Assembly: GCF_000003815.2 (NCBI RefSeq)
Contig: NC_049992.1
Span: 6,902,558-6,966,557, forward strand
DNA: 64,000 bases
Origin: Branchiostoma floridae
Taxonomy: Eukaryota; Chordata; Leptocardii; Amphioxiformes; Branchiostomatidae
Reading direction: 5' to 3'
Shown one piece after another: positions 19,281-53,557 of the stretch (within the stretch, counting starts at the first letter, position 1; every line of letters begins with the position of its first letter). Position numbers and translations under genes: made by a program. The notes under the pieces were generated by a model that was given only the letters and a program-made list of their open reading frames with translations, ran no database searches and had not been told where the DNA came from.

Positions 19281-19286
19281 AATGAA

Positions 19287-30163: not shown

Positions 30164-30202
30164 CCCTGACTCCATAGGAAACTTTCTGGTACCTTCCTAC
30201 AA

Positions 30203-30411
30203 CTACGTTTCAATCCTGTACAGACCTCTCCGATCCTGTATGAACTTGACATAGTTGGAGGGGAAGAGGCCTATCCTGCCCCGCAGGTAACCCAAGCACC
30301 AGCCGCCATCTTCCCCCTCCAGCACCTCGATGACGTCATCAACCTCCAAGCGTAGCTCGTTCTCTTCGTGGGGCACGTACGAGTACAGGGCCTTGGCGAA
30401 TCGCCGCGAGC
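30203..30411 (-). CDS. Gene A terminal exon: SH3 domain and stop
   Basis: 209 bp of coding sequence, acceptor TTTCAG, phase 1, ending in TAG. The SH3 signature runs in order: RRFAKALYSY (the ALYDY motif), EENELRLE (RT loop), DDVIEVLEGEDG (n-Src region), GWCLGYLRGR, and GLFPSNYVKFI (the 3-10 helix PSNY motif). The second tryptophan usual in SH3 domains is cysteine (GWC), as in PACSIN-type SH3 domains; the first W, the ALYSY tyrosines and P/Y of PSNY are intact, so ligand binding is plausible. Only 12 residues follow the domain. A possible minus-strand AATAAA lies at 29907-29912, beyond a MITE that sits 40 bp past the stop. Confidence 0.92.
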
Positions 30412-33400
30412 CTGAAAGAAATTCAAAAATAACGATTTATTGTCTCATATCGAAGTTCTCGTCCTTTACAGTTAAATGAAGTGAAGCCGGAATACTTAAC
30501 CGCGCACAGATGCACTGATGTCATAATTCTTTAGGCTTACGGCAATAACAGTTTCGTCTGGTATTCTCTGATAGCAATACCCAAGATACGCCGCGTATAT
30601 ATTCATTCTGCCGTCTTGTCTGGAATCGATAGAATAACCCCTGGTGCACTTTTATGGCTTAGTAATAACCGTTAAGAACTGCCACCGCGGTGCTGTGTAG
30701 TTGTTTTCAATTTTGCCTGATATTCTACCTAAGGGTTTGGCCATGTGGGGCCCGGCACTAAAAGTCCATATAGTTTATAGATCGATAGACAAGAAAGGTA
30801 GTTGTTGTAAATAACAAGATTTCTTTACCATACACTGATGCACCTGTGCACGGTAAAGCATCAAAAAGGACAATACACAGTTCATATGGCGATGTCTACC
30901 AATAATAACTATCTAAACATGATTTACATATGAGTGACGATGATCCCTATGAGTTAGTGACTCTGATATGCTCAACTTACTTCCATAGTTAGTTGTACTT
31001 GTATTGAATTGTTTTGCAAGTTCGTTCTTGTAACACTTAAAGAAGAGTAATGGATGTCTCTCGACACGACCTATTTCTATCCATTTGTAGAGATTGAATC
31101 ACCTTAAATATTGTTTACCTGGATGTCTGACCTTCATAAACGTGACAATATTGCTTGTTAATGGTGGCAATATTTTGGAGCTCTCTTGTAGAATATTGGT
31201 TCCTTCTTGATAACACCATCCCGGTGGGTACGCTAACTCCGCCTATTAACAAAACTGTGATATTGAGGTCATCTCTAAATTGTCTTGAACAACACTTGGA
31301 TATTTGAATAAGTGTATTTCCAGATGTGGCAGCCATATTGGATTTTCCGGGGTCAGACAGGGTCATTGCACCAAAACGAGGCTTGTATGGCCAGGCATAA
31401 ATTTTTATAATACTATAGTGTAGGTATTTTCAGTGGTAGTTTCGCCCCTATAACTTGAAATACTGCAGAGTATGTGCTTGTCATGTGAAGAAATTTTTTT
31501 TGGACATTTTGAATTTCATTTCAGCAATTTTATTCATTTTTCACAGTTTTTGGTTGGTGAGTTTGCCAAATCCCATTTTTTGGATGACCTTGCAATACGA
31601 CCCGTACAAAGATTTTGTTGCTGATTCTATACCTCTGATGAGGTGTGCACAATAAGAATCTATATCTCGAGAATTGATGAATTGAGAATGCCGCATTTAA
31701 TTCACCAAGTTTTCGAGTTTTATTTTGGTCGACTTGGCCATAGGGTACCCGGTAGACTTATGAGCGAGAGAGAGACTTTAGGTTAGGGTTAGGGTTAGAG
31801 TTGGAAGACTTTTATTTTCAATTTGCTACTGTTTTTGTCACCCAACTGGGTATAGGGCAGTAGTCTATACATCTAAAGTGATATTTCAGAGACTGCTGTT
31901 ATTACCATTGGTATTCAAGAGAAAGTCATTGTCATAATGAAGAAAGTATTACGTTTACATATCATGTGACATCTTTCAACAAGAGCTTCCTTTCCTCTCC
32001 TTGATCACAGAAAACCAATGGCCTCGTTAAATCCTATCCTCGACAAAATGTCTGGTTCTTTCGCTGAATCATTTATGTCTTCAATTTTCTTCTCCTGTTG
32101 GAATAACTTAGGCTTAGCACAACTGAAGGTGAAAATGCCAAGAAACGTATTTCACTAATCATTGCAACTCTGTAAGATTATGGGATTTGTGCGCTGTACT
32201 GTGTACTAATACGTTTGGATGCGATTTTCAGCGGCGTACCTTTGAGGGCTGCAGTCTTCCTCATCGTGTTTATCCCGGCGTAGGTGGATTTGGACCCCAC
32301 GGGCTTTGCTGTAATACACGGAGAGATAGTGCCAACTTTAGTACTCTGTTTCACCTTTATCCGAGGGTGACCTATATCCGTTGTTTGTAAAAAAAAGCGT
32401 ATTTAGGAATATGAATTCGACAGACGGTTGTTTCAAATCGGAACATTTTGAAAATATTGCAAATTTGAAACCATAGTTCGCAGACGTAATACTCCTAAAC
32501 GGATAAAGGTCACCCCGCGGATAAAGGTGGACTAGCGTTATATGTAATGCCATGGTTCACTTTACCAAACCCGAACCCACGGTAGGGCAGCTATCAAGAA
32601 CGAAAAGTACAATGTAAAAGATATTAAACACATAGAACGTAAACAAATTAGTCATTAACATAACTTGTGTATATATCTGGATAAACAGTTTTATTTTCCG
32701 TTTCCGCAAACACCCCTGCCGGGCCACGGTTTGGAAATGTGACTTTAGCATAACACGAGCTCTCACAGTACTGGACTCTATGGAGCCCCTCCCCACAGAG
32801 TTTGCGGTCGTTTACCGCTAAACCTGGAGCTCAGTTTTCGTTATCGCTATGGAATCCAGCGATCGGGATACTCTGTCACCATGGAAAGAAGTCATCACAC
32901 CCTCAAATATATTTTGGAGCACGCAGACACGCCGTAGAACTTTACGTGCAGACAAAACTTTGTGTGCCATCGGGCTGTGAATTCGCCCCCTGGACGGGCG
33001 ACGCGCCTGCCCTGTACAGCCTGAACGTTTTCAGAAATACGTGGCGGACGTGGCCTCCCGAAAAAACGTACGGACAAATTGCACGTACGGCGGGTTGTAC
33101 CCCTGGCTCTATATATGTGTGTGTGATCCGGTACAATAATTGGCAGGGAATTGCGACACTCATGCATATTCGTGTAGTGAAAGTCAATGGCCAGTGAGGT
33201 CTTCTGGTAGCCCGGTATCTTCGCAATTACGAAGAGGAGAGAAGAGACTCGGGAGCTATATTACGGCTGGATACCAGGCTAGTCTTCTGGCGCCTTGCAG
33301 TCCCGCAATATAGAGTGTATTACGTTAACGATGGTTATCGATACAAATTTATTTAAGACTGAGTCAAGAAAGTGCATGTGTGCGGTCAGAGGCGACATGA

Positions 33401-36400
33401 ATTTCTCATCCACAATTTGGAAAGAGTATTTATTGTAATTTTGTGTTACTATTACGGATCAGTTGTGGAACATTGAGGCAAGTTCAGTTCAGTTCAGATT
33501 AAGGCAAACAAGACAGTAAAACCCTACTATAGCTTGCTAACTAGTGCAAACCTTTTGTTACAATCGGCTATCAAGGCTTTATGACAACATGTATAATAAT
33601 GAATGAAAACCCACCTGGTAATACAACATAGGGCGGCGGTTCACTTCCCTTAGTTCGTTTGGGACTCTTTCCTACGGGCGGGTCACGGCGACCCATGTTG
33701 TAGTAGAACGCGAACTTCTTCTTCTCCTTCGCCCTTTTCCGCCTCCTGACACCGTACACACAGATCGCTATGCAGATGAGCAGCCACAGGCCGCCCGCTG
33801 TGGAGCCTACGATGATGGCGATCGTGGTGGATGACATGCTGACTCCCGGAGCTGTTGGACAACAAACGGTACAATTACAACAACTTGTCAGCCTCTTTCA
33901 TCGTTTAAAGTGAATGCCTTTGGTGGTCGTCTCGGTGGTCGATGACGGTTGAATAACTAATCAGGTATGCCAAATAGCTATTACTCAAGCAACTAAATAT
34001 GATTTTGGAAGCGGTCAGATAGCATCCATGGCCACTCACTATCTTTCGTCAGTGACAATGAGAACTAAGATCTTGTAGAACAATAGGTTTTATACCCTCA
34101 CTATAAATTGATATATAAGAGGCGAAGAGAAGGTTCAGATAGTCCAATAGGAAAGTCTCGGTCGTTTGCTACAATCTGATCGGTTAATAATGAGTTACAG
34201 AAATCATTTAGGCTCCATGAATATTTTCATCTCTGGCTGCCAGTTACGGAAACATGTGGGTCTTATGGGTCATGTCCATTGATGCTATTGGTTAAAAGTT
34301 TCTTCAGGCCTTACTAAGGGTCACTGACACAACACATGGCTCTGGCAATGGGAGAAAGGTCAAGTTCATGATCCTACCTTGTACCTTGAGATGTAATTTC
34401 TTCACATCCCCCTCGCCAACGAAGTTGCCCGCCGCACACAGGTACGTGCCCGTGTCGTTCACCTGGACGTCACGCAGGATCACAGAACTGGCGCGCACGT
34501 CACGCGACAGGACGTGAGACCTAGCAGCCAATGGGATGCCGTCTCTTGTCCACGTGATGTTAGGCGGCGGGTTGCCATCGGCAACGCACTGCAGGGTCAC
34601 GTGATCGAATACTGTGGCAGCACTGGTGTCTGACATGCTAATTATGGACGCCGGATCTAGAAAATATGATAAATTATAACTCATTTTCATATAGCCACGC
34701 CGTGTTGACCAATCACAGGCCTTCATTGCAATGAATTATACAGCCATAACGTGAATAGCATGGGTTAAAGAAGTATGTATTACTAAGCGCACAATAAGCT
34801 CACTTATAGGACTGAAGGGATTTCAACTTCAGTGCCAGTTTGAATTAGACATATGATAGTAATGTTATTGACCCACTTTCCCAAACGGGGAAGTTGCACA
34901 TGCCCAGTAACCTGTGGTTACCACGATTCGCTTACTCAGTGGTCTATTCGATTATATGGGCCAAACGCTATATATCACCGTAAACACAGGGTGAAAGCTG
35001 GTTAACTTTTTCATCATTTACCGAATTCAAACTAACATCGACAAAAAGCTGAACTCCCAGCACTCTTACAAATGTACCTCATTGGTCGAGCATTTACTTG
35101 TAGCAATGTAATCAATGTCAACGGCTTTAGTCTAATAGGAATCATTTAGATGAAATAAGACAAGTATTTTCAAAATCCTCACATTGAACGTCAACTTGCA
35201 TCTCATCACTCGCCGACTGGATCACGTGATCCACCACACAGCTGTATCGACCCGAGTCGGTCCTGGTCACGTGATGAATGTTCAAAGATGGCGTCCGGAC
35301 GTTTCCGCCGGAGTACTTCGTGTCGAATCCGTAGGTCTCGATTGGGAAGTCATCTTTCTTCCAGTGTAGTGACGTCACGTTCGGCTTGGCGTTCCTCACT
35401 GCGCATGTCAGGGTGACGGTTTTACCTGACGTCACGACGAAAGGACTTGTGGGTCCAACTTGCACCACAGGAGGAACTGAAAGAATTATGGAGTAGAGCC
35501 GTGTGTGTTATGCATGTAACGAAGACAATAAGAAAGTAATGATGAATGTGCTAACAATAATTGCACTGATTTGAGGTCTACTACACAAAAAGCGGTTTTC
35601 AACAATGTGAAGTTTTATATCTGCACAGTTTTATTGTGTGTACTCAATATTTTCTAGTCAAAGTCATGACCACACATACCAATCACAAGTTTTCCACGTG
35701 CTACAAAAGTGTTGTTTACAACCTGCAGGCTCATTGAACATACATCCCCTTGTTTAGACCACTAAACAGTTATAGAACATCGTTTCGTTGTAAAGCCAAC
35801 ATGATAAATCATGGTCCTAAACAGGTAGTAACACGGGGTGAAACGACCCTACCAGGTTTTCAAATTACCTTGCCAGTCCGACATTTAACGCTCGATAAAA
35901 TGTGTATGCGGGCATAAATGAGGTAATATTTCATTTCTGTAACATCGCAGGCGTTATATCAAGTTTTACTGCCAAGCGTGGCTTATAGAGAGGACCAATC
36001 ATGACGTGTTCCACTTTTTTGTGTAACGTCTTTCACGTGTATATCAGAAGTTAATTTAAAACAACGATGGCTATCTGTCTCCATCGATATTTCTGTCCCT
36101 TTTCGTGTTTCATAGAGTGAAAGTGTGAAATAGGATATGATTTTCCTTTTATGTGCACCGCGATCTGATGTTTTCAACAGGAATAAAGACGTAAAAATAT
36201 AGAAATGCATTCTTGACGTAAGTGTTCTTATTCACCCATTGACAAAGATACGTACCCAAAAGAGAAAGTTTTACAAAGCCCTCTTCACTGGGCACTCCCG
36301 CAACCATGACCACTAACACATATGTTCCTTCATCCTGCAACCTTGTGGGGTTGATCCTTAGACCTGCACCGTCTACAATGTCTGCTCGTCCAACGTAAGT

Positions 36401-36606
36401 ACCATAGGCCTCTCTTAGACCCGCCATTGGAGCATAATTAAAGATCATGGTCCGCTTAGACTTATCATTCCCCTGTACTTTATACCACGTTACCGCAACT
36501 ACGGCGTAGTCTGATGAGTACGTGGCCGGCAATGTGACGGGATCGCCCAAGATGGCCTGGAAGTTCTTGGCCATGTGGAGCCCGATGCTGCCCTGTGCGG
36601 TCATCC
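30203..36606 (-). CDS. Gene A: three-Ig transmembrane receptor with cytoplasmic SH3 domain (multi-exon)
   Basis: Six minus-strand exons were joined by eye: 36256-36606, 35183-35476, 34378-34656, 33615-33851, 32240-32308 and 30203-30411. Every intron starts GT and ends AG, and every junction is phase 1. The joined frame is open for 479 residues plus a TAG stop; only the signal-peptide exon is uncertain (candidate at 44671-44722). Domain order is V-type Ig (about residues 1-117), C2-type Ig (118-215), I/C2-type Ig (216-308), transmembrane helix and basic tail with YYNM and PPPY (309-387), basic linker (388-410) and SH3 (411-479). Known of the families: Ig domains mediate cell-surface recognition, and SH3 domains bind proline-rich peptides inside the cell. 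Inference: a type I plasma-membrane recognition receptor with a built-in adaptor domain. A paralog of identical exon plan (gene B) lies about 11 kb away in the same orientation, so the pair arose by tandem duplication. Ligand and tissue are unknown. Confidence 0.88.
31195..31345. mobile_element. Degenerate relative of the 5209 MITE (gene A intron)
   Basis: Shares ccggtgggtac..taactccgcct and attgtcttgaacaacactt..gatattt with the element at 5209-5384. It is in the intron between the linker and SH3 exons. Confidence 0.35.
31777..31799 (+). repeat. Short interstitial telomere-type repeat
   Basis: Contains taggttagggttagggttag, about three TTAGGG units, in a gene A intron. Confidence 0.7.
32240..32308 (-). 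CDS. Gene A exon: 23-residue basic cytoplasmic linker
   Basis: 69 bp, phase 1-1, acceptor TTACAG and donor GTACGC. It encodes AKPVGSKSTYAGINTM followed by RKTAALKG. It was recognised because gene B has the same micro-exon (48884-48952) with KPVGSK, AGINTMR and TA.LKG conserved. It joins the proline-rich end of the transmembrane exon to the SH3 exon. No known domain was recognised. Being 69 bp and symmetric, it could be skipped without breaking the frame. A MITE lies about 30 bp upstream of its acceptor in the intron. Confidence 0.82.
32339..32539. mobile_element. MITE, GTTCACCTTTATCC ends, copy 3 (gene A intron)
   Basis: Begins gtttcacctttatccgagg and ends ggtcaccccgcggataaagg..ctagcgtt. It lies in the intron about 30 bp upstream of the acceptor of the 23-residue linker exon of gene A. 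Confidence 0.7.
33615..33851 (-). CDS. Gene A exon: transmembrane helix and proximal cytoplasmic tail
   Basis: 237 bp, phase 1-1, acceptor CAACAG and donor GTGGGT. It encodes a short stalk, a hydrophobic helix (from IAIIVGSTAGG to ICIAICVYG), then a strongly basic stop-transfer run (RRRKRAKEKKK). The cytoplasmic part contains FAFYYNMGRRDPP, a lysine-rich spacer, and PPPYVVLP close to the exon end. YYNM fits the YxxM (PI3-kinase SH2) and YxN (GRB2 SH2) consensus as in CD28-type tails; PPPY fits the PPxY WW-domain ligand; YVVL fits YxxL. These are motif matches, not proof of binding. The YYNM block is identical at the nucleotide level to gene B for 44 bases. Confidence 0.9.
34378..34656 (-). 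CDS. Gene A exon: I/C2-type Ig domain (third Ig)
   Basis: 279 bp, phase 1-1, acceptor TTCTAG and donor GTAGGA. Motifs in order are VTLQCVADGNPPP with the first cysteine, NITWTR with the core tryptophan and a glycosylation sequon, SVILRDVQ, then NDTGTYLCAA with the second cysteine and another sequon. The GNPPPNITW signature is typical of I-set/C2 domains of cell-adhesion molecules such as hemicentin, nectin or CEACAM-like proteins. It is the membrane-proximal domain. The gene B counterpart (50923-51201) has exactly the same length and keeps both sequons, but differs at many synonymous sites. Confidence 0.92.
35183..35476 (-). CDS. Gene A exon: C2-type Ig domain
   Basis: 294 bp, phase 1-1, acceptor TTTCAG and donor GTGAGG. 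The domain starts VPPVVQVGP. It has the canonical first cysteine in VTLTCAV, the core tryptophan in LHWKKD, and the second cysteine in DSGRYSCVV. An N-glycosylation sequon (NVT) lies between them and is conserved as NIT in gene B. The exon ends at a TGT codon split by the intron. Length and motifs fit a single C2-set domain, the second of three in the ectodomain. The gene B counterpart (52058-52354) is 3 bp longer. Confidence 0.9.
36256..36606 (-). CDS. Gene A exon: V-type Ig domain lacking canonical cysteines
   Basis: 351 bp, phase 1 at both ends, acceptor TTCCAG and donor GTACGT. It encodes about 117 residues with a V-domain pattern. The B strand reads DPVTLPATY with alanine where the first disulfide cysteine belongs. 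The core tryptophan is in VTWYK. A GRADI and LRINPT stretch matches the D/E strands, and DEGTYVLVV is the F strand with leucine where the second cysteine belongs. CD2 domain 1, the CEACAM N domain and HEPACAM share this disulfide-free plan, so the domain belongs to that structural group on pattern alone. The residues just before it (TAQG then SIGL) look like a signal-peptidase site, placing the domain at the mature N-terminus. The open frame runs further 5' past the acceptor, but that is intron read-through. Confidence 0.85.
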
Positions 36607-36852
36607 CTGGAACATAATGGATGAGAGTGATTAGTTCTGCTGCAGTTTGCGGCCGCACTACTGATGGAGAAGACCGCTGCTTCATGCAGGTCTGCAGTAA
36701 GCCTGTTATAGGTGGGAAATGGAGGTCATCTACCATTAGGAACCGACAGGTGAAATAGATGTTGGGTCAATTTTAGAGGTCAAGTTCAGAATGAAATGCA
36801 GTGAATCGCTTTTTATTTCTTCAGGACTGCGCATTCTTGTTTTTTCGGGACA

Positions 36853-36925
36853 TTAATGAATGAATGAAGACCTTTATTGTAGGTTTGTGCCCAACCTAGC
36901 TAGCTATAGGTCACAACAAAGACAA
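36853..36925. mobile_element. LINE end with GAAT repeats, copy 2
   Basis: gaatgaatgaagacctttat and ggtcacaacaaagacaac match the copy at 8315-8415. It lies upstream of the V exon of gene A. Confidence 0.4.
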
Positions 36926-37690
36926 CATACATGTAGAATTATCATACATCTTGTCTAGAAAAGACGTTCCTATTCTTCTCGCTTGTTGGTTATGGTGAAA
37001 ATATAGGATTGTATGGATTTAGTAACAGTCGGTTTACACAATCGCATGAAGAATATCAATTTCTATACCTAATACCCGAGTGCTCGTCTTTTTATGTTTT
37101 AATCGTTTGATAGTGTTACGGCAACTAATTCACAGTCCTGAGAGACTTATACGGCCTTCACACTGAACCCGAATTAACAGAAATCAAGCAGAACCAGCTG
37201 GAATGAAGTCTTTGCAAAATTCGTGCCACATTCGGGGCCATTCTTCGTTGGAATTTCGAATGGACCTTATATCCCCTTTACACGAGAAGGAATGAGCCAA
37301 AATGCCGTCAGAATAAAAATCTTTTTTTTTCTGGCAATTCGTAGTGTATTCTAGAAATTCTCACTGCATTCCAGATATTCTTTTGGCTACATTCGGGCAG
37401 GATTCGAAGTGGCTTGCCGTTTCGGTTCTCCATCGAATGAGATAAGAATGTTACGAATTTGTTGAAATGCCGCAGAATGCGGACATAATGCAGTTAGAAT
37501 AGTTAGAATACACTTAGAATCCACTTTGAATGACATTCGACGCGCAGTTTCTTTCCTCAACCACCGAATGTTTAAGATAAACACAAGTTATAAGTTTGTT
37601 CTGTAATTTGTGCCTAAAACTTCCCCTATATTTCTAATATAGGGCAGTAAAAGTCACGAAGAATGCGATGCGATTTTTCCTTCAAGCTAC

Positions 37691-37758
37691 TCACATCTGA
37701 TATCCTAAGATACGTCGCTTCTTGTCACATCTGACGTCCTAAGATACGTCTCTTCTTG
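37691..37758. repeat. 34-bp direct repeat, two copies
   Basis: Units 37691-37724 and 37725-37758 (tcacatctga..tcctaagata..) differ at three positions. Confidence 0.85.
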
Positions 37759-38910
37759 ACGTATAATGACAGAGAGTGTGCTTGACGAGGGTCAAAGTAG
37801 CGATATCTCATAAGTTTACTGTAGTTGCCTCTCCTAGGCGTACGTTTATCGGCTTAGCTTTGCGCACCTTACGTTAGGGTGTGTTTGGGAGGATTGTGAA
37901 GACAGAATCGTAAGTATGATAAATTGTTGATGGAAACTCCTTGACGTGTTTTGTGGGCTGCGATTAGGATATGATGAATGGTGGAGGATGGCAGGGTTTT
38001 CCAAATAAGACGGTTCGCCATTCTAAGGTTGATATGTCAAGGTTCAAGGCCTCTGGCACATAGATTAAACACAACTGGCCAATGTTATGCAAATCTAGAC
38101 AATGGACGAGAAGAGTGGCTGTATATACAATGTAGAAGTTTTTATTGACTCTATAAAACATTTCCTGTCTGAAGCATCAGAATCAGAATGGTTTATTTGT
38201 ACAATTTCGCGGTCTTTAGGGCTAAATTGTGTGATACATTACACTTCAGCACACACTAACTTAAAATCATTAAAACGGTTGAATAAAATTATATACATTA
38301 CAAATATATTAGTATACATAATGATAAACTCGATCACTTAAAACATCTGACGATTGAGATACAACGTGAAGAACATTCGGTAGGCTTAAGAGAAATTCAG
38401 TGCTGGGTTACGTGAGTTCAGATGTCTAGTTCACAGTCACTTGTTCAACAGTTTCACCAGGTATGGGATCGGAGAGTTTTTGTGTCGATTGGTATGGCAT
38501 AGTGGAGTATTCAACCTGTAATCATGCTTAAGTGCAGGAGATGTATCCAAAAGGCCGCCTACATATTTTGCGGGGGAGTGGACATTAAACCTGACATTTT
38601 AGCTGAGAAAGTTACTGAGATGTTATAAAGCTTCTACAGCGCCAGGTAAATGCACCGGAGGCGGATGATTGACGTCTCAGACGGAGTGGGGGAGACTTCC
38701 CGGATGTAGGCGGCGGGAGTAAGACATCGTTTCATGCCTATGATTGACATGTGCATTCTTAAATTCAATCAAATTGAGCTCTGTATGACGTTTACAGCTT
38801 TTGGTGGGCTCAGTGTAAAATGGTAAGTAAGTGAGTTACTGTCGTTATCTTCAGCAAGAAGATTAAGTTTTCAGTTGTGCCATAGTGGAGCGGCTGTCGC
38901 GTGGGTATGT

Positions 38911-39131
38911 AACACCGGTTCACCTTTATCCACGGGGTGACCTTTATCCATTGTCTTTAATTAAATGGAAGCACACATTAAGGAGTATTAAGTCTGCGGA
39001 CTGTGGTTCAAAATTTGCAATACTTTCAAACGGTTCCGATTTGAAACCACCGTCCGTCGACTTCATATCCTTGAATGTTTTTTTACAAACAACGGATATA
39101 GGTCACCTTCGGATTAAGGTGAACCAGCGTT
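38911..39131. mobile_element. MITE, GTTCACCTTTATCC ends, copy 4
   Basis: Begins aacaccggttcacctttatc and ends aaggtgaaccagcgtta, with the family interior (gcaatactttc, gtccgtcgacttcatatcc). Confidence 0.7.
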
Positions 39132-39564
39132 ACATAGGTCAAGAGTATAACCTGTGGATGGATCTTCGTTATATTTGGTATTTTAGTAGCGGTTGTGTAA
39201 AGAAAGGTCCAGTAAAATGGGTTCCCTGGCAAATTCCTACGGTATTGCAGCCGGGTGTGTATATTTGTGTGTGTGTGGTTTGTATAACAAAACTCGAGAA
39301 GCTGTGGACGGTTCTGCATGTTAGTTGCTAAAAAAAGGTAGGGGTTGCAAAAAGAAAGGTCGAAATCGATAATGGCAGTGAAGGGTCAAAGCTCGCGGTA
39401 AAATGTCTAGATCTAGATTCACGAGCTCTTAGTAGAGGAAAGGTCTTGGCTCAGGTTGAAGGTAAGGATTTGACTTAAGTAATCAGAGCAATGTTATAAG
39501 AAAGAAATCTTAGCCACGTATTACTAATAGGAATTCTAATGTCTTTAGGTTTATGTCATACCTG

Positions 39565-39915
39565 TGACGCGAAAACGTTCGATACGGGTGTTCCGGACCG
39601 TGTGATAACTTCCGTATCACACAGGTTTGAAAGTTGTATCACACAGGCTTCCTTCGAGTAAATCGAACCATTTCGAGCGGGCCGAGTGCGGCACGGTTGG
39701 CAATTCGAATACCTGACTCGGACGTTGGAACACTTCTTGTTCGAGGGCACCAAATTTGTTCAACTTCTGGCGCATTTCGCATAAAAACATGGGTTTTCTC
39801 AGGTGAGTATGACATAAATAAAATTCAACACCTTCGGCACTCGGGCGATCTGATCCGCGGGAGGGCTGGGACCGAGGGTGATACGGAATACCCCGTGTTG
39901 TATTCTATATGTATC
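39565..39915. mobile_element. Dispersed ~350-bp repeat, copy 1
   Basis: Shares gttc.atacgggt, gtgataactt, gtatcacac, caaatttgttcaacttctgg and a gagggtgatacggaat..gtgttgtattctat end with 56695-57060. Confidence 0.6.
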
Positions 39916-42900: not shown

Positions 42901-43038
42901 ACCGTCAAATTACCGCACTTCGCTGGTGCACTTGCCTACGTGACGGCCCGCCTCCGCACTCGGCGCAGATATTAGCAGGTGGGGGCAAACCATTAGACGT
43001 GCTATTATGTGGAAATGTCGTGTCGGGTGTGAGTATCT

Positions 43039-43505: not shown

Positions 43506-44670
43506 TTAAGTGTTGGGTCTGGACAGAAAACTACACACATGGATTTCAGGAACACACATTCTTCACACAGACTTTCAGTAAAACCAACAGTTCTTTGCGT
43601 TGCGGTTTCCACTGGTATCGAATGGCAAGTTTGAACTTTACTCCTCGGATCCTTTCACAAGATCATTGACATGTGAATATAGTCGAACCTCTGGGTTAAG
43701 TGCCAAGCAACCTGACAATACTCCACTCGGCAATATATGAATATAGGTAATTATCATCAAGATACCTCAAGACTTTAATATGCACACCGACATCAGACAT
43801 GTTTAAATCTTACTTCTACCACGTATGACAGTTCACAGATTATTGCTCATCCATTCTAAAACTTTCCTCAGTTTATTTTATAACTCCCCCGCATAACTTT
43901 TGGGTTACCCCCCGTTGCGCTGCAATAATAATGTTAGGCTCAGCAGCAGGATCTAGAAAAGAGTCTATGATTAATATATGATAATGATCTGTAATACATA
44001 CTCATGCACATGAACTAAATTATACCCACTTAAGTCCATATGCAATCTATCTCGCAGACATACTTTCTGCTCTGACGATTGAGATAAGATGTCTGCTATT
44101 CTAGAAGGAATAGAAATGCTACCAGTTGGAAGTAAGGATTACAAAGATAAGAAACATTCTCAATATTAGTCTTTATAAAGAGAAGTAATAAAGTTTGCTT
44201 ATCTTTTAATCAGTTAATCACATCTGGCTTGCATTTTTTGCCAGGGGATTATCATTTAGCGTGCCATGCTTCCTGTAAAATGCAGTTAAGTTCTGCTTAA
44301 GTTGACTTCGATATTCGCTCCACGCAGGAAGGACGTTAAGAATTACCTCCCAGGCGTTTATAACGTCAGGAGGCGAGTAGAGCGTGAAAATTAAAACCGA
44401 CGGAGGGTCTAACGTATGTGGTATGAAACCTGCATGAATCACTCCCAACCATGGTTATATGTCTATATAACACAGCGGTATAAACATGGCCAAAGTTAAG
44501 ACGTTCCTATCAACCGGTTGCTAGCGCAGTCCATCCATCTTTCAGACAGTAGGTTCTATCTCTCCCACGCTATACACTGCAAAGACGCACTACTGATAAA
44601 GAGAGCAAAGATCATACAACTGCATTCTAGGCACGAAATTATCATCAAAGCAAGTGCGACAGCTACTTAC

Positions 44671-44722
44671 CATGGTAAAGGCTTGTTGCCAACAGCCCCA
44701 GGAAGTAATGACGATAGGTCAT
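44671..44722 (-). CDS. Candidate signal-peptide exon of gene A (tentative)
   Basis: A 52-bp minus-strand stretch starts at an ATG with A at -3. It encodes 17 residues (MTYRHYFLGLLATSLYH) plus one base, and ends at a strong donor, GTAAGTAG. The phase (1) is the one the V exon of gene A needs, and the joined junction codon is GGG. The hydrophobic core FLGLLATSL is short, with a likely cleavage after TAQG encoded in the next exon. Against it: the intron would be about 8 kb, the hydrophobic stretch is weak, and no homologous exon was found upstream of gene B. A chance ORF beside a chance donor is a real alternative. Confidence 0.3.
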
Positions 44723-47700
44723 TGTTGCGGTACCAGATCGCAAAACGCTGCTCGCAAAATTGCCTCGTCCAGTTGCTTCAGGCAGTATTCACGGGCAAAA
44801 TTGTTTTCCCGAAGAAGTGTCTCCGATAAAAACGGCACCTTTCTCCTCCAGTTGAGCCTCTGGCTTAGGCCAAGTCAAATGGCGATCTACCGTGAATGAT
44901 GCAGTCCTAAGATAGGTGCTTATAGCATGTCCCACGGCTACTCCGTTTTTCTGGCTACGGACGAAGTGCTAGAAACGAAGATATGGCGACGTCGTCGTAT
45001 AGAGCTGTCTACGAGATCTAGCGGAAATGATACCTCGTTCCACGAGTCGGTATCGACGATGAGCGGCGGTCCCTCGCCGGTAGGAGCTCGCCCAGACGCC
45101 GCCGGAAAATTAACGAGGCAATACTTGGCCCCAACAGCATCGTCGGCTATTCTGGTATTGCTTATAACAACAAATGGTTCTGCAGTGCGCAGGCTCAGGC
45201 TATCTGGAACGCGTAGCGAAGCAGTCAATCAAGGAGCAATGCATTTCGCTCATCCAGCCCCGAGGGCATCCATGTTAACTTTTTTCAAGGAGAGGCAATG
45301 GCGTTGAAAATGCGGGAGGAGATTCTGACCCAGAAAATGAGGCTTCAAGTGCATTGATACATACCCTGGCTTCTGGGCACACGGAAATCAATAGAAGAAA
45401 ATGGGGTTCGAATTCATTATAATAGGCGTCTGGAGAATTACTGTACCTTGTTTCCAGAGAAGACAAATTATGAGAATGCTGTTCATTGAATGCAGTGGAA
45501 AATGAAACACATTTTATCAGTCAGTGTACCCACTATGAAACCGAAAGAAACACATTATTTCAAACAGTTGTCACTATTTCACCAAGCTTTTAACACCTAA
45601 GTGATCACCAAAAGACTGTATTTCTACTAAAAGCACAAAACCCCACCATCATACAGAACGTGGGACAGTTCATTAACCACTGCCTTCAAAGAAGAAGTCA
45701 AACCCGACAATAGTATTCATAGCATCATGTATTTGATTAGACACTAGTTTTATGTATTTACCTCTCTTAGTTCTTGATACTGTATATGCAATTAACCCTC
45801 TGGCATGATTTTGCAAATATACATCAATTATGACTATCATTCCTACTCAATGATTCTTTTTCACTTCGTGTGTCCGCTTTAACACGTTTGAGAATTTCTA
45901 GGTGCAGTTGATGGTTTGCAAGTGAAACACGTCTTACACGTACCGAGTTCCTACCTACATGGCCCCGTATACATGTACTTCCCGCTTCATTACATCCCAA
46001 TAACAGCTATAAGCTCGGTCACACTTCAAATTACGAATGCGCGACAACAGGTATTATTATGGATAGTATGTCAATGGTGTGGGGCTCTGACTTGTAAAAC
46101 AGTTCTCGATTGAACAGACAATTGTCTCGATTTGCATGGCAATGTCCAGACGTGTTTTCTTTATGTCTCAGGGGCCTTCACTTTTGACATATTACCCACA
46201 ATTCATGTCGCCACGCATGCGCACTCGGAAGTGTGAAAGAGCTTATTGACTCCCGGCTTTATAATCAAGAGCTACCATGAAAATGTATTTCTTCCTGTGC
46301 ATCATGGCTTTACCCTCGAGAAAGTGGACTCAGCAAAAATAACTGGATTCTAATAAACAAGATAATTTATTTCATAGAATATGTTAAAGTTATGATGTAA
46401 TATTTTCTCTAATCCCATAGAGCTATCGTCAAGATACAACGAGGAAGTTCATGTATAGATTCGTTTGGTTTTTATTGATTCCCAAACGTGCCGCCTGTAT
46501 TTTACAATGGCTGGAATGAAAACAATAAAGAAAAGGCATTACGGTTTATGTATGTAGAATGCCGAGCTGAATAAAGACCTTGACAACCGTAGTCGAAAGG
46601 AATATTGTAAAATGCTCATGCCAAAACAGAACCTAAAGTGGATTATTTCTGGACGAGACCTGGAACAAGAATGTGGAAGTCTGATTCCACCAAATGAAAT
46701 TCGTGGTACGTGTGCCAAACTGTGGTCACTGTTCATTTTTCTTCTTCCCTGTGTATTGAGTAAAAGACATGAAAACCGCAGAATTTACACGATGATAACG
46801 ATTTCTGCAGTTTCTCACATAATGTCTGTTAAAGTCACAGATCATAGAAAGAAGAATTATTAGACTTACACCACATCTGAAGCCACTCAATAGGTTGAAT
46901 ATTCTGGATATGCTGAAGGCTTTATCGACGTCTGGCAAGCTGGAAGGTTACTCTAGCTGAAATACATCGTCATCCATATTCCTTCAGGGGATACCAGCTT
47001 TAAAGGCTAGAAGCTGTACAGTTTTAAAAGTTGAAGTATGGGGATCATTTTCACGTCTATGGTCAAACAGATCTAGACAGCGAACAGATACTCTTTCAGT
47101 GCACTCTTCTGACATGTAAAACATTTCCGATATAACTATCACGACTCTTTTCTACTGGACATTCCACCTGCCAAGAAAATTCCACACACATATAACAGCA
47201 GACATTTGAGAATAAAAATCCTTGCGGCGTCCAAGCGATTAGAGTGAATTGCTCCTTGCTTCGGCGCAGTCATAATGTCTGCCAGTGGGATCAAGAAAGT
47301 ACTGCAGGCGTCTCTGCATACATTCTGTGGAGTAAAACACTTTCCTTGGAGACAAGTCGTTGCATATGATGTAGCAACATTATGTACAAAGTCGGAGTTG
47401 GGAACGAAGAGGCCCGTACTGTCAGTCCCAAGAACATGACGTTCCTTATACTTGTCTTGCCTTGGTCTTATAAGACACCTATTCCACATCTTCGACAGTT
47501 CTTTAATTCCAACGTTCGTATATTCCTTTTTCGAATGTTCTTTTTCGAAGCCTTCCTTCTACTGGTTCCTTGTAGTAATCATGTCTTGTGGTTGAAACTT
47601 CTAGCCTGTATGAGACAAGACTTCAACACGTCACACACTTCTCTTCATCTGTCGTTCTTCTAGTTCCACAGTTTGTCGAAGTGCAGGCACTGTGGAAAGA

Positions 47701-47930: not shown

Positions 47931-48205
47931 TCAACCTTCGATTATATTTCTGATGAAGATACCATTGATTTTAGCATCTTTAAGGCATGTAGAAGTCTTA
48001 GAAACTACCGAAGAATCACCTTTCCTTTCCGCTATGAACTTGACATAGTTGGAGGGGAAGAGGCCTATCCTGCCCCGCAGGTAACCCAAGCACCAGCCGC
48101 CATCTTCCCCCTCCAGCACCTCGATGATGTCATCGACCTCCAGGGGCAGTTCGTTCTCTTCCCGGGGTATGTACGTGTATAGGACCTTGGCGTACCTTCT
48201 GCCTG
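47931..48205 (-). CDS. Gene B terminal exon: SH3 domain and extended C-terminus
   Basis: 275 bp of coding sequence, acceptor CTGTAG, phase 1, ending in TGA. SH3 motifs in order: KVLYTY, EENELPLE, DDIIEVLEGEDGG, WCLGYLRGRI, GLFPSNYVKFI. After the domain come about 34 residues rich in Ser/Thr/Lys (from AERKGDSS to NIIEG) with no counterpart in gene A. A minus-strand AATAAA lies at 47913-47918, only 13 bases past the stop, giving a very short 3' UTR if used. The middle of the SH3 (48033-48127) is identical over 95 nucleotides to gene A. Confidence 0.9.
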
Positions 48206-51200
48206 CTACAGGGAACACAAATGGACGTCGTTTATGAAGGTTAGTCATCCAGGTAAACAACGTTCAAATACAATTCAACCTCTATAACGGAAAACGCGGG
48301 GATTTACTTCCCAGCTAAGTGACATAGGGAAATAATTTGACACAGAAGAGTATTTATTATGCTAAACTTTTTTTCCAATTATATGTGGAGAAAGGTCAGA
48401 GTTCTGTAATAAAACACATTATGACGATACTATTACCTTCCCTGGATTAGCATAATCATAACACTTCGTATTTGCTTGATTGATAGAGCACTAACAGAAC
48501 CCATTATCCAGACAAAATTATACACAACATGCCTATAACGTATCTATTACAACACTGAACTAGATAAACATAAAGCCATGGTGAAATCCCGTCCTCGCTT
48601 GCATGCAAATAATTGCATCGTTTCGCCTAATCAGCTCCCATATGCAACATTAAACCCCGGTGCGTAATTGACTCAACTACTTTCATTAGCCAGGTGCGTA
48701 CCGCCGTTCAACGATTCCATCAGACCAGAGGCTTACAAGCAGTTCTGATTTATTTGCCAACGCTTCACAGTCCTAAACACATGCATCACGAAGTAAGGTG
48801 TTGATATCCCAATAAATCTCCCTATACTGAGCACAAAGCTTTCATCCAAGCTTCACACGCCGTGGACTAAAAGATCCCCTCACCTTTTAGCTCGGCAGTT
48901 CTTCTCATGGTGTTGATGCCGGCACGGGCAGCTTTGGATCCCACCGGCTTGGCTACGAGAGGGAAAATTCGGGTTGACATAGACATATGACCTTTCTGCA
49001 GCCTGAGCTTTCGAGATAAGAAGTGCCTTTTAAAGTATAAAAGGCCTAAAGTAAGGTTCAACACTGTTGCCATAATGTGTTTTTGCAAGGTTGTAAAAGA
49101 AAGTGGCATTTTACTGATGGTTCTGTTGCTTTGGACGGTCGATGAGACCCGATAGACAACCCGGGTCCAGTGTTGTTTTCTTCTATTGCTTCGTCGATAT
49201 CTACACTTAGAGAATATATAACCCTTGTTAGTCGAATTTATGTGTGTGCATTTTTCCAATACAGTATTATGAAAGCATCGATAAGATTTTCAGGCTGGGT
49301 CAAATATGTGAAAGATTGGGATACATTGAGCAGTGCAAGTCGTGTTAGGGTTAAACGGCAACCCATGAACAATGAACGATTTTTCCGAAGTTAAATAGTC
49401 TTCATATACCAGGCCACTTAAACAATCCATACAAGCTAGCTTAAGGAAGACCGGCCTTCAATTTGTTGATCTTTTGATCTGGAACTGCATTTGCAAAGCA
49501 TTAGACAACTACACTGACGGTGACAACTGGTAACAAATCTCTTTCTTCTTTTATGTATACTGCCGTCCCTAGCTCTTATGTTACTGGATGTGTACGGTGT
49601 TTTGAATAGACAGTAACTTTATACATAGCAATACATAATGAATTAATCCTTTCGGCGAGTATTTTTGCGTGAGGTTTGAATTTTGACAAAAATAATACCC
49701 ACCGGGTAGTGCAGCGTAAGGGGGCGGTTCACCGTCTTCGTCCCGCTTTGGACTACTTCCTGCGGGCGGATCACGGCGACCCATGTTGTAGTAGAACGCG
49801 AACTTCTTCTTCTCTTTCTCTTTCCGGCGCCTCAGCAGGATGTAGACACACAGACCGACACAGATAATGAGCCAAAGGGCTCCCGCGGTCGCGCCGACTA
49901 TAATTGCCAGCGTCGACGATGGGGTGCCTCTCCGACGGGCTGTAAGAATCCATGGCATAAATGGTCTGAACTTTTCATGATTGAAATTGAACAATTTCAA
50001 TAACAGCTTATTGAGAAGGAAGTGCGCGACTGCTTTCCGAGACAAACTAATCAACAATTGTCGTGATTTTCAATTTTAAATGCCATTTATTATAGTGATT
50101 TTCAGAACAAAGGAGCACCATGACAGTGTACTGATTGATTTCATCTTACTACTTTATGACGTTGATAAATTTGTGCAATTTTATCATTCCGAAATCAACT
50201 GGCATAAAGAGAAAAAGTACAAGACAAGGAATTGTCACTGAAACGTGTGGAGAATAACGATCTCCATGAATTCACATAATCTCTACTTGAAGAAAGAATG
50301 GGCAAGGCCATGGACTAAGCATTTTGGTAATAGGCATAACTAATCAAGAGAACTTCAAAGGTGAACGCCCCCGAGACGTAAACAAAAAGACCTCTGGCCA
50401 TTGTAATGCAAACCACTGACTTGGGCCCTATGCACGACAACAAGTATTGTGGGTAAATGTCAAAGGTGATGGCCCCTGACTAGTCAATAGTTTTTGTCTG
50501 AACCAGGAAGTGTTTTGTTTATGTCTCAAGGGCCTTCAACTTTGATGTGTTACCCACAATACCTGTCGCCGCGCAAGCGTACAAGGAGTGGTAAACCAGT
50601 TTTTTAAGAGCCCTTCACCCTTGACCTTACTCATGCGTACTCAGAGTCGTGAACCTCCTCTTGTTAGGACATTCATCATCATCATTAATCATCCTCTATG
50701 AGGTGCGACAAGTAAAGTTTAACTTCCCGAAAAGTCTGTCTTTAATCGCTGTGAGAAGTCCCAGGCCCTCTAGACCAGTTTCTGACTCAATAAGTTTCTT
50801 CGAAGTTAGCCTTGGGCGACCAACACCTTTCTTACAGAAATCAGGTGTCCAGAACAAGAGTTTTCCAGCAGGCTCTATACTACGAGCCACATGGCCGGCA
50901 AGGAGTAGTCGGGCATGCTTACCCTTAACTGATAGATCCACGGACTTGATGTCGCTCTCCTTCACCCCGTTGTCCGCCGTGCACAGGTACGTGCCCGTGT
51001 CGTTCGTCTGAATGTTCCGCACGGTGACCGAGCATGCGCGCACGTCGTTGGACAGGCGGTGGATCTTGGACGGCATGGCCAGCCCTGCCCGTGTCCACGT
51101 GATGTTGGGAGGGGGGTTCCCGTCCGCCACACACTGTAACGTGACGTCATCCGACACCCAGGCGGTCTGGCTTTTGGAGATGCTGATGATAGAAGCGCGA

Positions 51201-53557
51201 TCTGGGAGTGGATAACCACCGACGTTATGTTAGATTACTTAAAATAGTTTAGCCCCCCCCCCCCCCTCACCAATGAAACAGTCCACGCATGCGGACTGGG
51301 AATTGAGTATGGTTTTACGGACTCATTGTGAATACACATTGTTCTACTACGTCTGTGTGTGTGCTTGATTATTCCCTGGCAGCAGAGGGATAGAAGCCTG
51401 TTTAACATGTTATGCATGGTTTACAAGTACATACTGACTAAGTGTAGAAAACGTGATCAGTAATAAGAAATATGCATTTTGGGTATATTAATGGTCTACA
51501 GAGGTCAACGACCAAACTACGATGAATAGTCACATGATTTATTTAAGGTGTATTCCACTCCAGAAGCGAGTGTTATTTTCTGATAGATGATATTTTGGGG
51601 GGATACAAATGCACCCGACTTTTCGTCAAGCTACCTCATTTGTCTTTTCGACAATAATGCTTTCTAAATCCAAGTACCCCCATTCGGACCCGCTTCTAAT
51701 GTTCTGCGCCGTATACAATACTAGTATTGCCAGCAAAGACGACTTGCATCACACTTTCTAGTTAACGGTAGTCGAGATAAGCTTGACAAAGCAGTCAAGA
51801 GATTTGGGTACTTCAATGTAAGAAGTTGAAAGTAGGTCAACGTAAAATGGCTGCGCCAAAACTGTTTGCATTTCCGACTTCGGGCACAACAGTTTGCTAA
51901 TGGTTGGGTCTCTAAGCTAATGACAGCAATTGAGTGACTATTAGAAGGTACACAAAAACTTGATTCAAGCAGAACTATCTATTCTCCGAGTGAATCATAA
52001 TACCCGCTTCTGGAGTGGAATACCCCTTTAAAAACGCAAGAAATCTATCATCCTTACACAAGACGTCCAGACGTAGCTCCGCCCCTGTCCTCTGCACCAC
52101 GTGCTCCACCGCACACCTGTACGTCCCTGCGTCGGCTCGCGTCACCTTGTTGATGGTCAGAAACGGCGAGTTGGCGTTCCCCTGGTTGTACTTCATGTCC
52201 ATCCCGCTCGTCCTCTCTATGGGAATGCCGTCCTTGAACCAGGCCAGGGACGTGATGTTGGGTTTAGCGTTCCGAACGGTGCACGTCAGCGTCACAGACT
52301 TTCCCCACTCCACTGCGTACGGGTTGGCAGGGCCAACCTCTACTACTGGCGGAACTACATTAGAAGAAAAAACACAAGAATCAGCATGCAATATTGATCA
52401 CAAACAGTAAGGTGTCCCTAATAGATATCCTATGCGATGCTACTGGCTTTGACGTTAAGTCGTACCCATAGGAGAGTGCTAGATCTAGTCGATAAGCTTG
52501 GCATTCAGTTCAAATTTTTCGTGAAAGTTCACCACAACGTTTCATCATCATAAAGGTCGAGTTTTCTGCCATGGGGGACAAAATCATGTATGTTTTTAAA
52601 GTATTGCAAAAAAATATGACCTTTGCTATGTTTTGACGTGTATTTAACCTCTGAATTGCAGCTGACATGCTGGACTGATCTATTAGGACGGGGGTGAAAT
52701 CCCAGTGTCATTGCTATATTGCTGTGAGTTGACCTCTCATTTTTGAACGAAAATTAACATGACAATTCCAGTTTTGCAGCAGTGGTAAAGATTTAAAGGT
52801 GAAAATGTACCTGTGATATGCTTTGGATTAATCGTTATTGAGTGCCTTAACCATGTATGGCATTGGGAATCTTATTTGGTAGTCCCTCCCTTTAGTTAGT
52901 TGCTTGACAGTAGACAAATGCCTGTAACAGACAACAGGCGTGACCCATCAGTTTCCTAGGCAGCTACTGCCGTGGCTGGTTATACTAACGGTCTCCCCTA
53001 AGCCTCCTATATCCCAAATCCCACTGCAATACCTGGTTCTACTACATCGCACGGCTTGTCCCACCTAAACCCTGCATATTTAACTCCCAGGTGGATACAT
53101 TCTTATCTTTTCAAGGACAACCATAATCCCGCTCCCTCCCCGTAACGAGTGTAAAACCTCTATATCGGGGAAAGCCGTGCTGCATATGGAAGGCAGTGAT
53201 CCCTCTCACCCATCAATGTCAGCTGAAGAGAGTCCTCCTGACCGCCAAGCTCCTCCGACATCACCATCAGCACGTAGGTTCCGCCGTCCCCGGGCTTGGT
53301 GGGGTTAATCCTTAGCGAGGCGTGGCCTGTAAGATCGGCTCTGCCCTGGTAGGACTTGTAAGCCTTCCTGACGGAAGACGCCGGGCTGTAGAAGAAGACG
53401 ACAGTTCGCGTGTTCTTGTCCGTGACTTTGGACCACGTGAGGCTGAGGATCTTGTAGCGAGTGTTGTAAGATGCAGGGAGGACAGCGGCTTCACCAAGGA
53501 TGGTACGGACCTCCTTCTGGGTCACCTTCAGTCCGATACCACTCTGCGCTTGTGATC
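47931..53557 (-). CDS. Gene B: paralogous three-Ig transmembrane SH3 receptor (multi-exon)
   Basis: Six minus-strand exons: 53210-53557, 52058-52354, 50923-51201, 49703-49939, 48884-48952 and 47931-48205. All splice sites are GT/AG and all junctions phase 1. The joined frame is open for 501 residues to a TGA stop; the signal-peptide exon was not found. Architecture and exon lengths match gene A exon for exon: cysteine-less V Ig, C2 Ig, I/C2 Ig, transmembrane helix with YYNM/PPPY tail, 23-residue linker, SH3. By eye the V domains are only about 40 percent identical, while the transmembrane-tail and SH3 parts are far closer. Inference: tandem-duplicated receptor whose ligand-binding part has diverged while signalling has been kept. 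It differs from gene A by a longer C-terminus after SH3 and by transposon insertions in its introns. Confidence 0.88.
48884..48952 (-). CDS. Gene B exon: 23-residue basic cytoplasmic linker
   Basis: 69 bp, phase 1-1, acceptor TCGTAG and donor GTGAGG. It encodes AKPVGSKAARAGINTM followed by RRTAELKG. It corresponds exactly in length and phase to gene A exon 32240-32308. The sequence joins PPPYAALP of the preceding exon to the SH3 exon, so the junction reads LPAKPVGSK. No domain was recognised; the basic residues could contact the membrane or a protein partner. Confidence 0.85.
49703..49939 (-). CDS. Gene B exon: transmembrane helix and proximal cytoplasmic tail
   Basis: 237 bp, phase 1-1, acceptor TTACAG and donor GTGGGT. 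Order: short basic stalk (RRGTPSS), transmembrane helix (LAIIVGATAGALWLIICVGL and on), basic stop-transfer RRRKEKEKKK, FAFYYNMGRRDPP, an acidic/lysine spacer (SSPKRDEDGE), and PPPYAALP. The YYNM, PPPY and YxxL (YAAL) motifs are conserved with gene A; the spacer between them is not. Conservation of the short motifs against a diverged spacer supports function for the motifs. Confidence 0.9.
50355..50600. repeat. Inverted-repeat fragments in gene B intron
   Basis: gggtaaatgtcaaaggtgat is complementary to atcaaagttgaaggcc-type sequence at 50530-50565, and a related segment (tatgtctcaggggccttcac) is at 46160-46190. A dispersed repeat of unknown class. Confidence 0.45.
50690..50920 (-). mobile_element. 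LINE (non-LTR) polymerase C-terminal fragment in gene B intron
   Basis: Minus-strand frame encodes HARLLLAGHVARS, a KLLFWTP motif, then KGVGRPRLTSKKLIE and ETGLE. This follows the C-terminal pattern of many LINE ORF2 proteins (R..FAGH, LW/FWTP, GRP, DTG/ETG). It ends in a short ATGATGATG tail near 50673-50690, as expected of a 3' end. It begins about 5 bases after the donor of the third Ig exon, so it is a 5'-truncated insertion in the same orientation as the gene. Confidence 0.75.
50923..51201 (-). CDS. Gene B exon: I/C2-type Ig domain (third Ig)
   Basis: 279 bp, phase 1-1, acceptor TCCCAG and donor GTAAGC. It encodes VTLQCVADGNPPP, NITWTRAG and NDTGTYLCTAD with both disulfide cysteines, the core tryptophan and two sequons. 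The length is identical to gene A. The reading frame does not stop at the donor: it continues in frame into intronic sequence down to 50696, where it encodes a LINE polymerase tail (listed separately). If the intron were retained, the receptor would end there as a three-Ig protein without a membrane anchor. Confidence 0.9.
51543..52031. mobile_element. TTAA-flanked MITE in gene B intron
   Basis: Ends are inverted: TTAAGGTGTATTCCACTCC on the left and GGAGTGGAATACCCCTTTAA on the right, each continuing into cagaagcg / cgcttctg. Both ends abut TTAA, the target duplication of piggyBac-type transposons. No transposase frame. It ends 27 bp from the donor of the C2 exon of gene B. Confidence 0.75.
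52058..52354 (-). CDS. Gene B exon: C2-type Ig domain
   Basis: 297 bp, phase 1-1, acceptor ATGTAG and donor GTAAGG. It starts VPPVVEVGP and has the disulfide cysteines in VTLTCTV and GTYRCAVEH, the core tryptophan in LAWFKDG, and an NIT glycosylation sequon. RNAKPNITSL is shared with gene A. The donor side of this exon lies only 27 bp from the end of a TTAA-flanked inverted-repeat transposon (51543-52031). Confidence 0.9.
53210..53557 (-). CDS. Gene B exon: V-type Ig domain lacking canonical cysteines
   Basis: 348 bp, phase 1-1, acceptor CTTCAG and donor GTGAGA. The mature N-terminus is probably just after QAQS, before GIGL. The B strand reads AAVLPASY (alanine at the cysteine position), the core tryptophan is in LTWSK, GRADLTGHASLRINPT covers the D/E strands, and GGTYVLMVM is the F strand with leucine at the cysteine position. 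Loss of both cysteines is therefore shared by both paralogs and predates the duplication. The GRAD, LRINPT and GTYVL stretches are shared with gene A; the regions between them (BC, C'C'' and FG equivalents) are the most divergent parts of the pair. Confidence 0.85.

What the first reader, a model, noticed from the sequence alone, without database searches (positions are those of the whole stretch)
30203..53557. Tandem pair of Ig receptors that carry their own cytoplasmic SH3 domain
Both genes splice by eye into three Ig domains, one transmembrane helix, a motif-bearing tail and a C-terminal SH3. I know of no well-characterised vertebrate Ig receptor with an SH3 inside its own tail; such receptors normally recruit SH3 proteins (for example CD2 recruiting CD2AP). 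A fused receptor-adaptor would be a distinct signalling design. The exon joins are seen directly; the receptor role and novelty are inference.
Basis: partly seen in the sequence, partly recalled or inferred. Interest (0 to 1): 0.88.

Follow-up and report, generated by a model that had tools for sequence, protein, structure and literature searches.

The report
Amphioxus Ig receptors with built-in SH3
Two neighbouring lancelet genes each encode a cell-surface recognition receptor that carries its own signalling (SH3) domain inside the cell; they belong to a family strung along one chromosome, in which half of the SH3 domain is kept almost letter-for-letter identical while the outward-facing parts have diverged.

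Summary
Gene A (28501-44722) and gene B (47631 to beyond the window) of Branchiostoma floridae encode signal peptide, V-set, two more Ig domains, TM helix, tyrosine/proline tail and an SH3 with an intact pocket. Each has 8 phase-1 exons, not 6; the SH3 is near-terminal. They are not just a pair: at least 26 such SH3 exons lie on this chromosome and one on another. In the rows listed by three protein searches, Ig plus SH3 occur together only in Branchiostoma. That architecture is already in print (one table row, PMC7286890); ten searches turned up no functional study. New here: the family's extent, a disulfide-free nectin-like V domain, a conserved YYN(M) motif, and an SH3 C-terminal half that is 95% identical in DNA between paralogues (N-half 65%). 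This tract's likeness tracks chromosomal distance (weakly) and not ectodomain likeness, which suggests gene conversion; constraint on the DNA itself is not excluded. Most likely they are recognition receptors with varied outer faces sharing one SH3 effector; function is inferred.

The parts
44671..44722 (-). Gene A exon 1: signal peptide (MTYRHYFLGLLATSLYH..)
   Evidence: same start as database protein P0004
36256..36606 (-). Gene A exon 2: V-set domain without the canonical Cys pair
   Evidence: Cys positions (family alignment, A represented by P0004)
35183..35476 (-). Gene A exon 3: second Ig domain
34378..34656 (-). Gene A exon 4: third Ig domain
33615..33851 (-). Gene A exon 5: transmembrane helix and proximal tail (FYYNM, PPPYVVLP)
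32240..32308 (-). Gene A exon 6: distal tail (PAKP.., STYAGINTMRK)
30226..30411 (-). Gene A exon 7: SH3 domain
28501..28559 (-). Gene A exon 8: last residues ending QMKRSV and stop
53210..53557 (-). Gene B exon 2: V-set domain without the canonical Cys pair (exon 1 lies outside the window)
52058..52354 (-). Gene B exon 3: second Ig domain
50923..51201 (-). Gene B exon 4: third Ig domain
49703..49939 (-). Gene B exon 5: transmembrane helix and proximal tail (FYYNM, PPPYAALP)
48884..48952 (-). Gene B exon 6: distal tail
48020..48205 (-). Gene B exon 7: SH3 domain
47631..47689 (-). Gene B exon 8: last residues ending QMKRSV and stop
30239..30333 (-). 95-base tract in gene A's SH3 exon, identical to that of gene B; homogenised across the family
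48033..48127 (-). 95-base tract in gene B's SH3 exon, identical to that of gene A

Best explanation
Genes A and B are two members of a cephalochordate family of nectin-like cell-surface recognition receptors, with at least 26 SH3 exons on one chromosome of B. floridae, in which a V-Ig-Ig-TM receptor is fused to an SH3 exon. SHOWN: the architecture, the conserved ligand pocket of the SH3, a conserved YYN(M) tyrosine motif near the membrane, ectodomains that have diverged to median 42-52% identity per domain, and a C-terminal SH3 half that is near-identical in DNA between paralogues. INFERRED: each ectodomain binds its own ligand (a sister receptor or another surface protein). Clustering lets a Src-family kinase phosphorylate the YYN motif, which docks Grb2/GADS (and p85 where YxxM is present), while the built-in SH3 directly holds one common proline-rich effector of the actin/endocytic kind that CD2AP/CIN85 SH3 domains bind. 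Many outer specificities thus feed one inner pathway without a separate adaptor. The C-terminal half of the SH3 is kept uniform by recurrent short gene conversion between paralogues, more often between chromosomal neighbours. The confidences given here and for the rivals are not mutually exclusive.
Against: No expression, binding or phosphorylation data. 6 of 69 models lack the SH3; three of them end at or soon after the proximal-tail exon, so SH3-less isoforms or annotation splits exist. YxN is missing in 7 of 26 and PPxY in 17 of 26 non-redundant tails. The CIN85-type ligand motif PxxxP[RK] occurs in only 4 of 26 own tails; nothing shows which ligand the SH3 holds. The residue after the conserved SH3 tryptophan is Cys in 37 of 39, where the CD2AP chains aligned have a second Trp. 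The distance effect is weak, and proteins of other species or hybrids stood in for some B. floridae ectodomains in that test. Two blocks of the tract resist change even in drifted copies, which conversion alone does not predict. GC3 is higher in the tract (0.81) than in the whole coding sequences (0.65 and 0.73), so codon preference may add to its likeness.
Confidence: 0.6

Rival explanations
1. Immune receptors: the family recognises microbes or non-self, as other amphioxus receptors do, and signals through Grb2 and Lck homologues.
For: Large family on one chromosome; V is the most divergent Ig domain between paralogues and the fastest part between orthologues (71 of 987 residues); CD28-like YxNM in 15 of 26 tails (motif reading from PMC11599192 passages); V domains of P0005 and P0008 hit Pfam Receptor_2B4 above cut-off; amphioxus Grb2 and Lck are reported with surface receptors (PMC10199209, PMC8211107 passages).
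Against: Orthologue pairs are stable, 89-100% identical in V in 8 of 9 pairs, 79% in the ninth; no expression data.
Confidence: 0.3
2. Cell-adhesion molecules only: a nectin analogue that ties itself to actin-linked partners through its SH3, with little signalling (close to the reading of PMC7286890).
For: DIP, nectin and IgLON ectodomains are among the nearest folds; the paper proposes direct SH3-mediated interactions in place of adaptors.
Against: The juxtamembrane tyrosines are among the best-kept residues of the tail (Y385 in 37, Y386 in 38 of 39), which pure adhesion does not need.
Confidence: 0.3
3. The near-identical tract reflects nucleotide-level constraint (an exonic regulatory or splicing element) and not gene conversion.
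For: Two blocks inside it hardly vary even in drifted copies: TGACRTCA in 25 of 26 and AANATGGCGGC in 25 of 26 loci (the likeness to CREB and YY1 sites is recalled and was noticed after the fact).
Against: Silent sites between the blocks are also mostly above the N-half baseline; variants follow chromosome position (TTG codon in 6 of 7 loci below 7 Mb, 0 of 19 above); TGACGTCA is common here (7 places in the window, counted on both strands as 14); three of nine orthologue pairs differ by the same S/R switch at residue 481.
Confidence: 0.25
4. Annotation artefact: Ig gene and SH3 gene are separate neighbours.
For: Wrong domain architectures from gene prediction are documented in lancelets (PMC4967905, start of abstract and passages).
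Against: Same order and phase in both genes; V, Ig2, Ig3, TM and SH3 exons in order in three further loci on this chromosome (L028-L030); the order recurs in annotations of several species and assemblies.
Confidence: 0.02

Closest known systems
Lancelet IgV/IgC/IgC/TM/SH3 protein of PMC7286890 (Table 2)
   Same: Same species, same domain order, same stated restriction to Branchiostoma
   Different: There one table row and a paragraph, with no exon, family or motif analysis in the parts read; here at least 26 loci, complete gene models, homogenised SH3 half
Nectins / nectin-like proteins (PVR)
   Same: V-C-C type ectodomain, one TM; among the nearest V folds
   Different: No Cys pair in V, no afadin-type C-terminus, SH3 in the tail
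CD2 / SLAM family with CD2AP
   Same: V domain without disulfide (recalled for CD2); SH3 like that of CD2AP
   Different: CD2 recruits CD2AP in trans (recalled); here three Ig domains, SH3 in cis, no ITSM
CD28 family
   Same: YxNM-type tail motif
   Different: CD28 has a single V domain and no SH3 (recalled); PMC11599192 reports no convincing CD28, CTLA4 or ICOS homologue in B. floridae
CD2AP / CIN85 (SH3KBP1)
   Same: Closest single SH3 sequences among solved structures
   Different: Adaptors with three SH3 domains; no Ig, no TM (recalled)
VCBP3 (amphioxus)
   Different: VCBP has tandem V regions and a chitin-binding domain; secreted (recalled)

Membership tests
Branchiostoma IgV/IgC/IgC/TM/SH3 family (PMC7286890) | V, two further Ig, TM and SH3 in one protein | tested here: met
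Branchiostoma IgV/IgC/IgC/TM/SH3 family (PMC7286890) | found only in Branchiostoma | tested here: met
   Both Ig and SH3 families in none of the 66 non-Branchiostoma rows (120 of 259 listed) and none of the 8 (two of them of unnamed organism); 42 of 42 hits are Branchiostoma. Reach limited to proteins of 0.55-1.75 times the query length that share short words; other cephalochordate genera were not seen
Nectin family | V-C-C ectodomain with TM | tested here: met
Nectin family | canonical disulfide in the V domain (recalled) | tested here: not met
   no Cys at either position in 39 of 39 rows (one row has a gap at the first and lacks a proper V domain)
Nectin family | C-terminal afadin-type PDZ motif (exact letters recalled) | tested here: not met
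   last four residues of 26 paralogues, none of the ExYV/AxYV type
SLAM/CD2 family | V domain without disulfide (recalled) | tested here: met
   Pfam Receptor_2B4 above cut-off on the V domain of P0005 and P0008; E <= 0.001 in 11 of 39 members, in P0036 on the third Ig instead
SLAM/CD2 family | two-Ig ectodomain (recalled) | tested here: not met
   three Ig domains
SLAM/CD2 family | ITSM TxYxx[VI] in the tail (recalled) | tested here: not met
   0 of 26
CD28 family | YxNM/YxxM tail motif | tested here: met
   YxNM in 15, YxxM in 18 of 26 tails
CD28 family | single V-domain ectodomain (recalled) | tested here: not met
   three Ig domains
CD2AP/CIN85 | SH3 sequence similarity | tested here: met
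   top hits; best single-domain chains
CD2AP/CIN85 | three SH3 domains, no membrane span (recalled) | tested here: not met
   one SH3 and a TM helix

The most novel reading that the evidence does not exclude
The family works as a chromosome-wide 'variable outside, constant inside' receptor system. The signalling half-domain is a constant cassette of about 90 bases, continually copied between paralogues up to megabases apart, so that every recognition face keeps addressing one shared effector; the unvarying YY1-like block inside it may also act at DNA level as a conversion seed or shared regulatory element.
Probability: 0.2. Interest if true: 0.85.

Novelty: new variant of a known kind. Interest (0 to 1): 0.62.

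Why it matters
Vertebrate Ig receptors call in SH3 adaptors; here the SH3 module is part of the receptor and the receptor is a multigene family. It offers a natural test of whether receptor-adaptor recruitment can be short-circuited by fusion. It is also an unusual case in which gene conversion appears to hold part of an intracellular module constant while the recognition domains go their own ways.

Tried and rejected
Separate-genes artefact: rejected. 'Hemicentin/amalgam/nectin-4-like' database names: similarity labels only. Tyrosine motifs of other families: ITSM in 0 of 26; ITAM-like spacing in 3 of 26, one of those inside the SH3; ITIM-like in 13 of 26, several of them SH3 residues. A self-ligand for the SH3 of the CIN85 kind: PxxxP[RK] in 4 of 26, PxPxx[RK] in 0 of 26; plain PxxP in 18 of 26 and PxKP in 15 of 26, not pursued. 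TGACGTCA as a special signal: common in the window. Literature: ten searches, in a library that lacks most subscription papers; the only mention of the architecture that I saw is PMC7286890. PMC6071037, PMC4967905 and PMC4284660 have no 'SH3' in the main text (only passages seen). Huang 2008 (PMC2493400) is not held, so a mention there is not excluded. The Ig3 DNA control search never got an answer; script controls took its place, and there the Ig3 control reached only 3 of the 11 sources tried. A Pfam SH3 census of the genome did not complete. Families missing from structure tables were not used as evidence of absence.
Full report
What is there. The window is Branchiostoma floridae: gene B's exons 2-8 are contained letter for letter in P0002, 'hemicentin-2-like [Branchiostoma floridae]', and the window lies at G000:C14:6902558-6966557. 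On the minus strand two genes follow each other head to tail. Their exons splice with GT/AG and keep phase 1 throughout, each Ig domain being one exon. Gene A is complete in the window (44722-28501, 508 residues). Gene B's first exon begins 6.85 kb beyond the window's edge. Pfam finds V-set, I-set/ig and SH3 in both proteins above cut-off. AlphaFold2 gives three confident Ig domains, a TM helix, a disordered tail and an SH3.

The family. Protein searches returned 69 Branchiostoma rows in all, from B. floridae, B. belcheri, B. lanceolatum and hybrids; 63 carry the SH3 signature. In one search (best 120 of 259 listed) 54 rows are Branchiostoma and none of the other 66 carries both Ig and SH3 families. 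In one search (SH3 region only) 42 of 42 hits are Branchiostoma proteins with both. In one search (profile of 18 members) 63 of 71 are Branchiostoma and none of the other 8, two of them of unnamed organism, carries both. These searches reach only proteins of similar length sharing short words. In the genome, the 95-base tract finds 27 places, a lower bound: 26 on C14, from 3.78 to 17.85 Mb, and one on C16. All 27 SH3 exons are open. V, Ig2, Ig3, TM and SH3 exons are seen in order in L028, L029 and L030 on C14; in the C16 locus (L032) exons matching the Ig2, Ig3 and TM parts of P0052 are seen, the V exon not in the listed matches. For 21 of the 26 C14 loci I could name a matching database protein that is in the alignment. 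An ectodomain tree of 37 rows puts orthologues of different species together at short distances and paralogues roughly one change per site apart, with many inner forks weakly supported. Nine orthologue pairs differ at 1-7% of residues per domain, paralogues at 14-60% (one of the nine, P0036/P0037, comes from two hybrids and may not be cross-species). So many of the duplications predate the split of these Branchiostoma species.

The inside. The pocket residues of the SH3 are invariant or nearly so. Its nearest solved relatives are the SH3 domains of CD2AP and CIN85 (the higher Grb2 total sums two domains). CIN85 SH3 domains are said to prefer PxxxPR (PMC3805583 passages). In CD2AP a Phe-to-Tyr change ended ubiquitin binding of the first two SH3 domains but not of SH3-C (PMC3770644 abstract and passages). 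This family has Tyr (Y491, 39 of 39) where the CD2AP SH3 aligned has Phe, so ubiquitin binding of the first kind is not expected; that the two places correspond is my inference. Next to the membrane sits FYYN[MI]: YxN in 19, YxxM in 18 and YxNM in 15 of 26 non-redundant tails. [quoted passage not shown] Amphioxus Grb2 and Lck homologues are described in PMC10199209 and PMC8211107 (passages).

The homogenised half-domain. Between A and B pS is 0.66-0.79 in the V, Ig2, Ig3, TM, distal-tail and last exons, and 0.27 in the SH3 exon. The difference sits in one run of 95 identical bases covering the C-terminal half of the domain; no shuffle of 20,000 gave so long a run of identical silent codons (32, best shuffle 19), and the flanking introns are 31-33% identical without gaps. 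Across the 26 C14 loci the N-half of the same exon has a median nucleotide identity of 65%, the C-half 95%; mean silent-codon identity is 0.49 over 18 columns against 0.83 over 28 (p 7e-6). The boundary was set after seeing the A/B tract. Other exons give 0.52 (TM, 10 genes, 45 pairs) and 0.51 (Ig3, 3 genes, 3 pairs). The tract's likeness follows chromosomal distance (rho -0.28, Mantel p 0.0185) and not ectodomain likeness (rho 0.07, p 0.69), whereas the N-half shows no distance effect (rho -0.04) and a slight one of ectodomain likeness (rho 0.16); this used 21 loci, several with a protein of another species or a hybrid as stand-in. A TTG codon variant occurs in 6 of 7 loci below 7 Mb and in none of 19 above (Fisher p 3e-5; the cut, at the gap between 7.0 and 14.6 Mb, was made after seeing the data). 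That is what short-tract gene conversion predicts. Against a pure conversion account, two blocks (TGACRTCA and AANATGGCGGC) stay in 25 of 26 loci, even in copies that have drifted elsewhere (L024, L025), so some constraint on the DNA itself is not excluded; one locus, L026, has neither. GC3 is 0.81 in the tract against 0.65 and 0.73 in the whole coding sequences, which fits GC-biased conversion but also codon preference.

How it most likely works. A set of diversified recognition faces reports into one shared inner module: ligand binding clusters the receptor, the YYN tyrosine recruits SH2 adaptors, and the built-in SH3 brings a common proline-rich effector of the actin/endocytic kind without CD2AP-like intermediaries. 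Architecture and conservation are shown; ligand, kinase, SH2 and SH3 partners are inferred.

Known or new. Duraivelan and Samanta (PMC7286890; abstract, section 10, part 1 of 2 of the discussion and passages seen) list IgV/IgC/IgC/TM/SH3 for Florida lancelet, state that the protein seems to be present only in Branchiostoma and that its order is not found elsewhere, and suggest that the SH3 lets it avoid multiple adaptors. Huang et al. 2014 (PMC4284660, passages) describe Ig domains expanding in lancelets almost wholly through 1-1 phase exons, which is the exon phase seen here. I found no functional study in ten searches of the held library; Huang 2008 was not available. The family's extent, complete gene models, tail motif and the homogenised half-exon are additions made here.

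Noticed in passing
30239-30333 and 48033-48127: 95 identical bases in two genes whose other exons are near silent-site saturation; family-wide homogenisation of half an SH3 exon.
   Followed up: yes
33851-32240 (gene A tail exons): Gene A's tail has YVVL and STYAGI with ITAM-like spacing and an ITIM-like STYAGI; gene B has AARAGI there and so lacks the second tyrosine. The same spacing occurs in P0005.
   Followed up: partly
C-termini of family members: Recurrent ending [KQ]RS[IV] (10 of 26 paralogues), not a textbook PDZ motif; meaning unknown.
   Followed up: no
32308-32240 and 48952-48884: The small tail exon carries a family-wide motif GIxTxR (G, I and T each in 24 of 26, R in 25 of 26) of unknown use.
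   Followed up: no
19242-19673 and 23560-23976: Open stretches that look like retroelement remnants (from memory of such sequences; not searched).
   Followed up: no
42905-43530 and about 9375-10206: Simple-repeat tracts that translate as THSL/SVSQ-like repeats; open, but hardly genes.
   Followed up: no
P0003, P0034, P0044: Database models that end at or soon after the proximal-tail exon (LPG..), so without SH3: either split annotation or an SH3-less isoform.
   Followed up: partly
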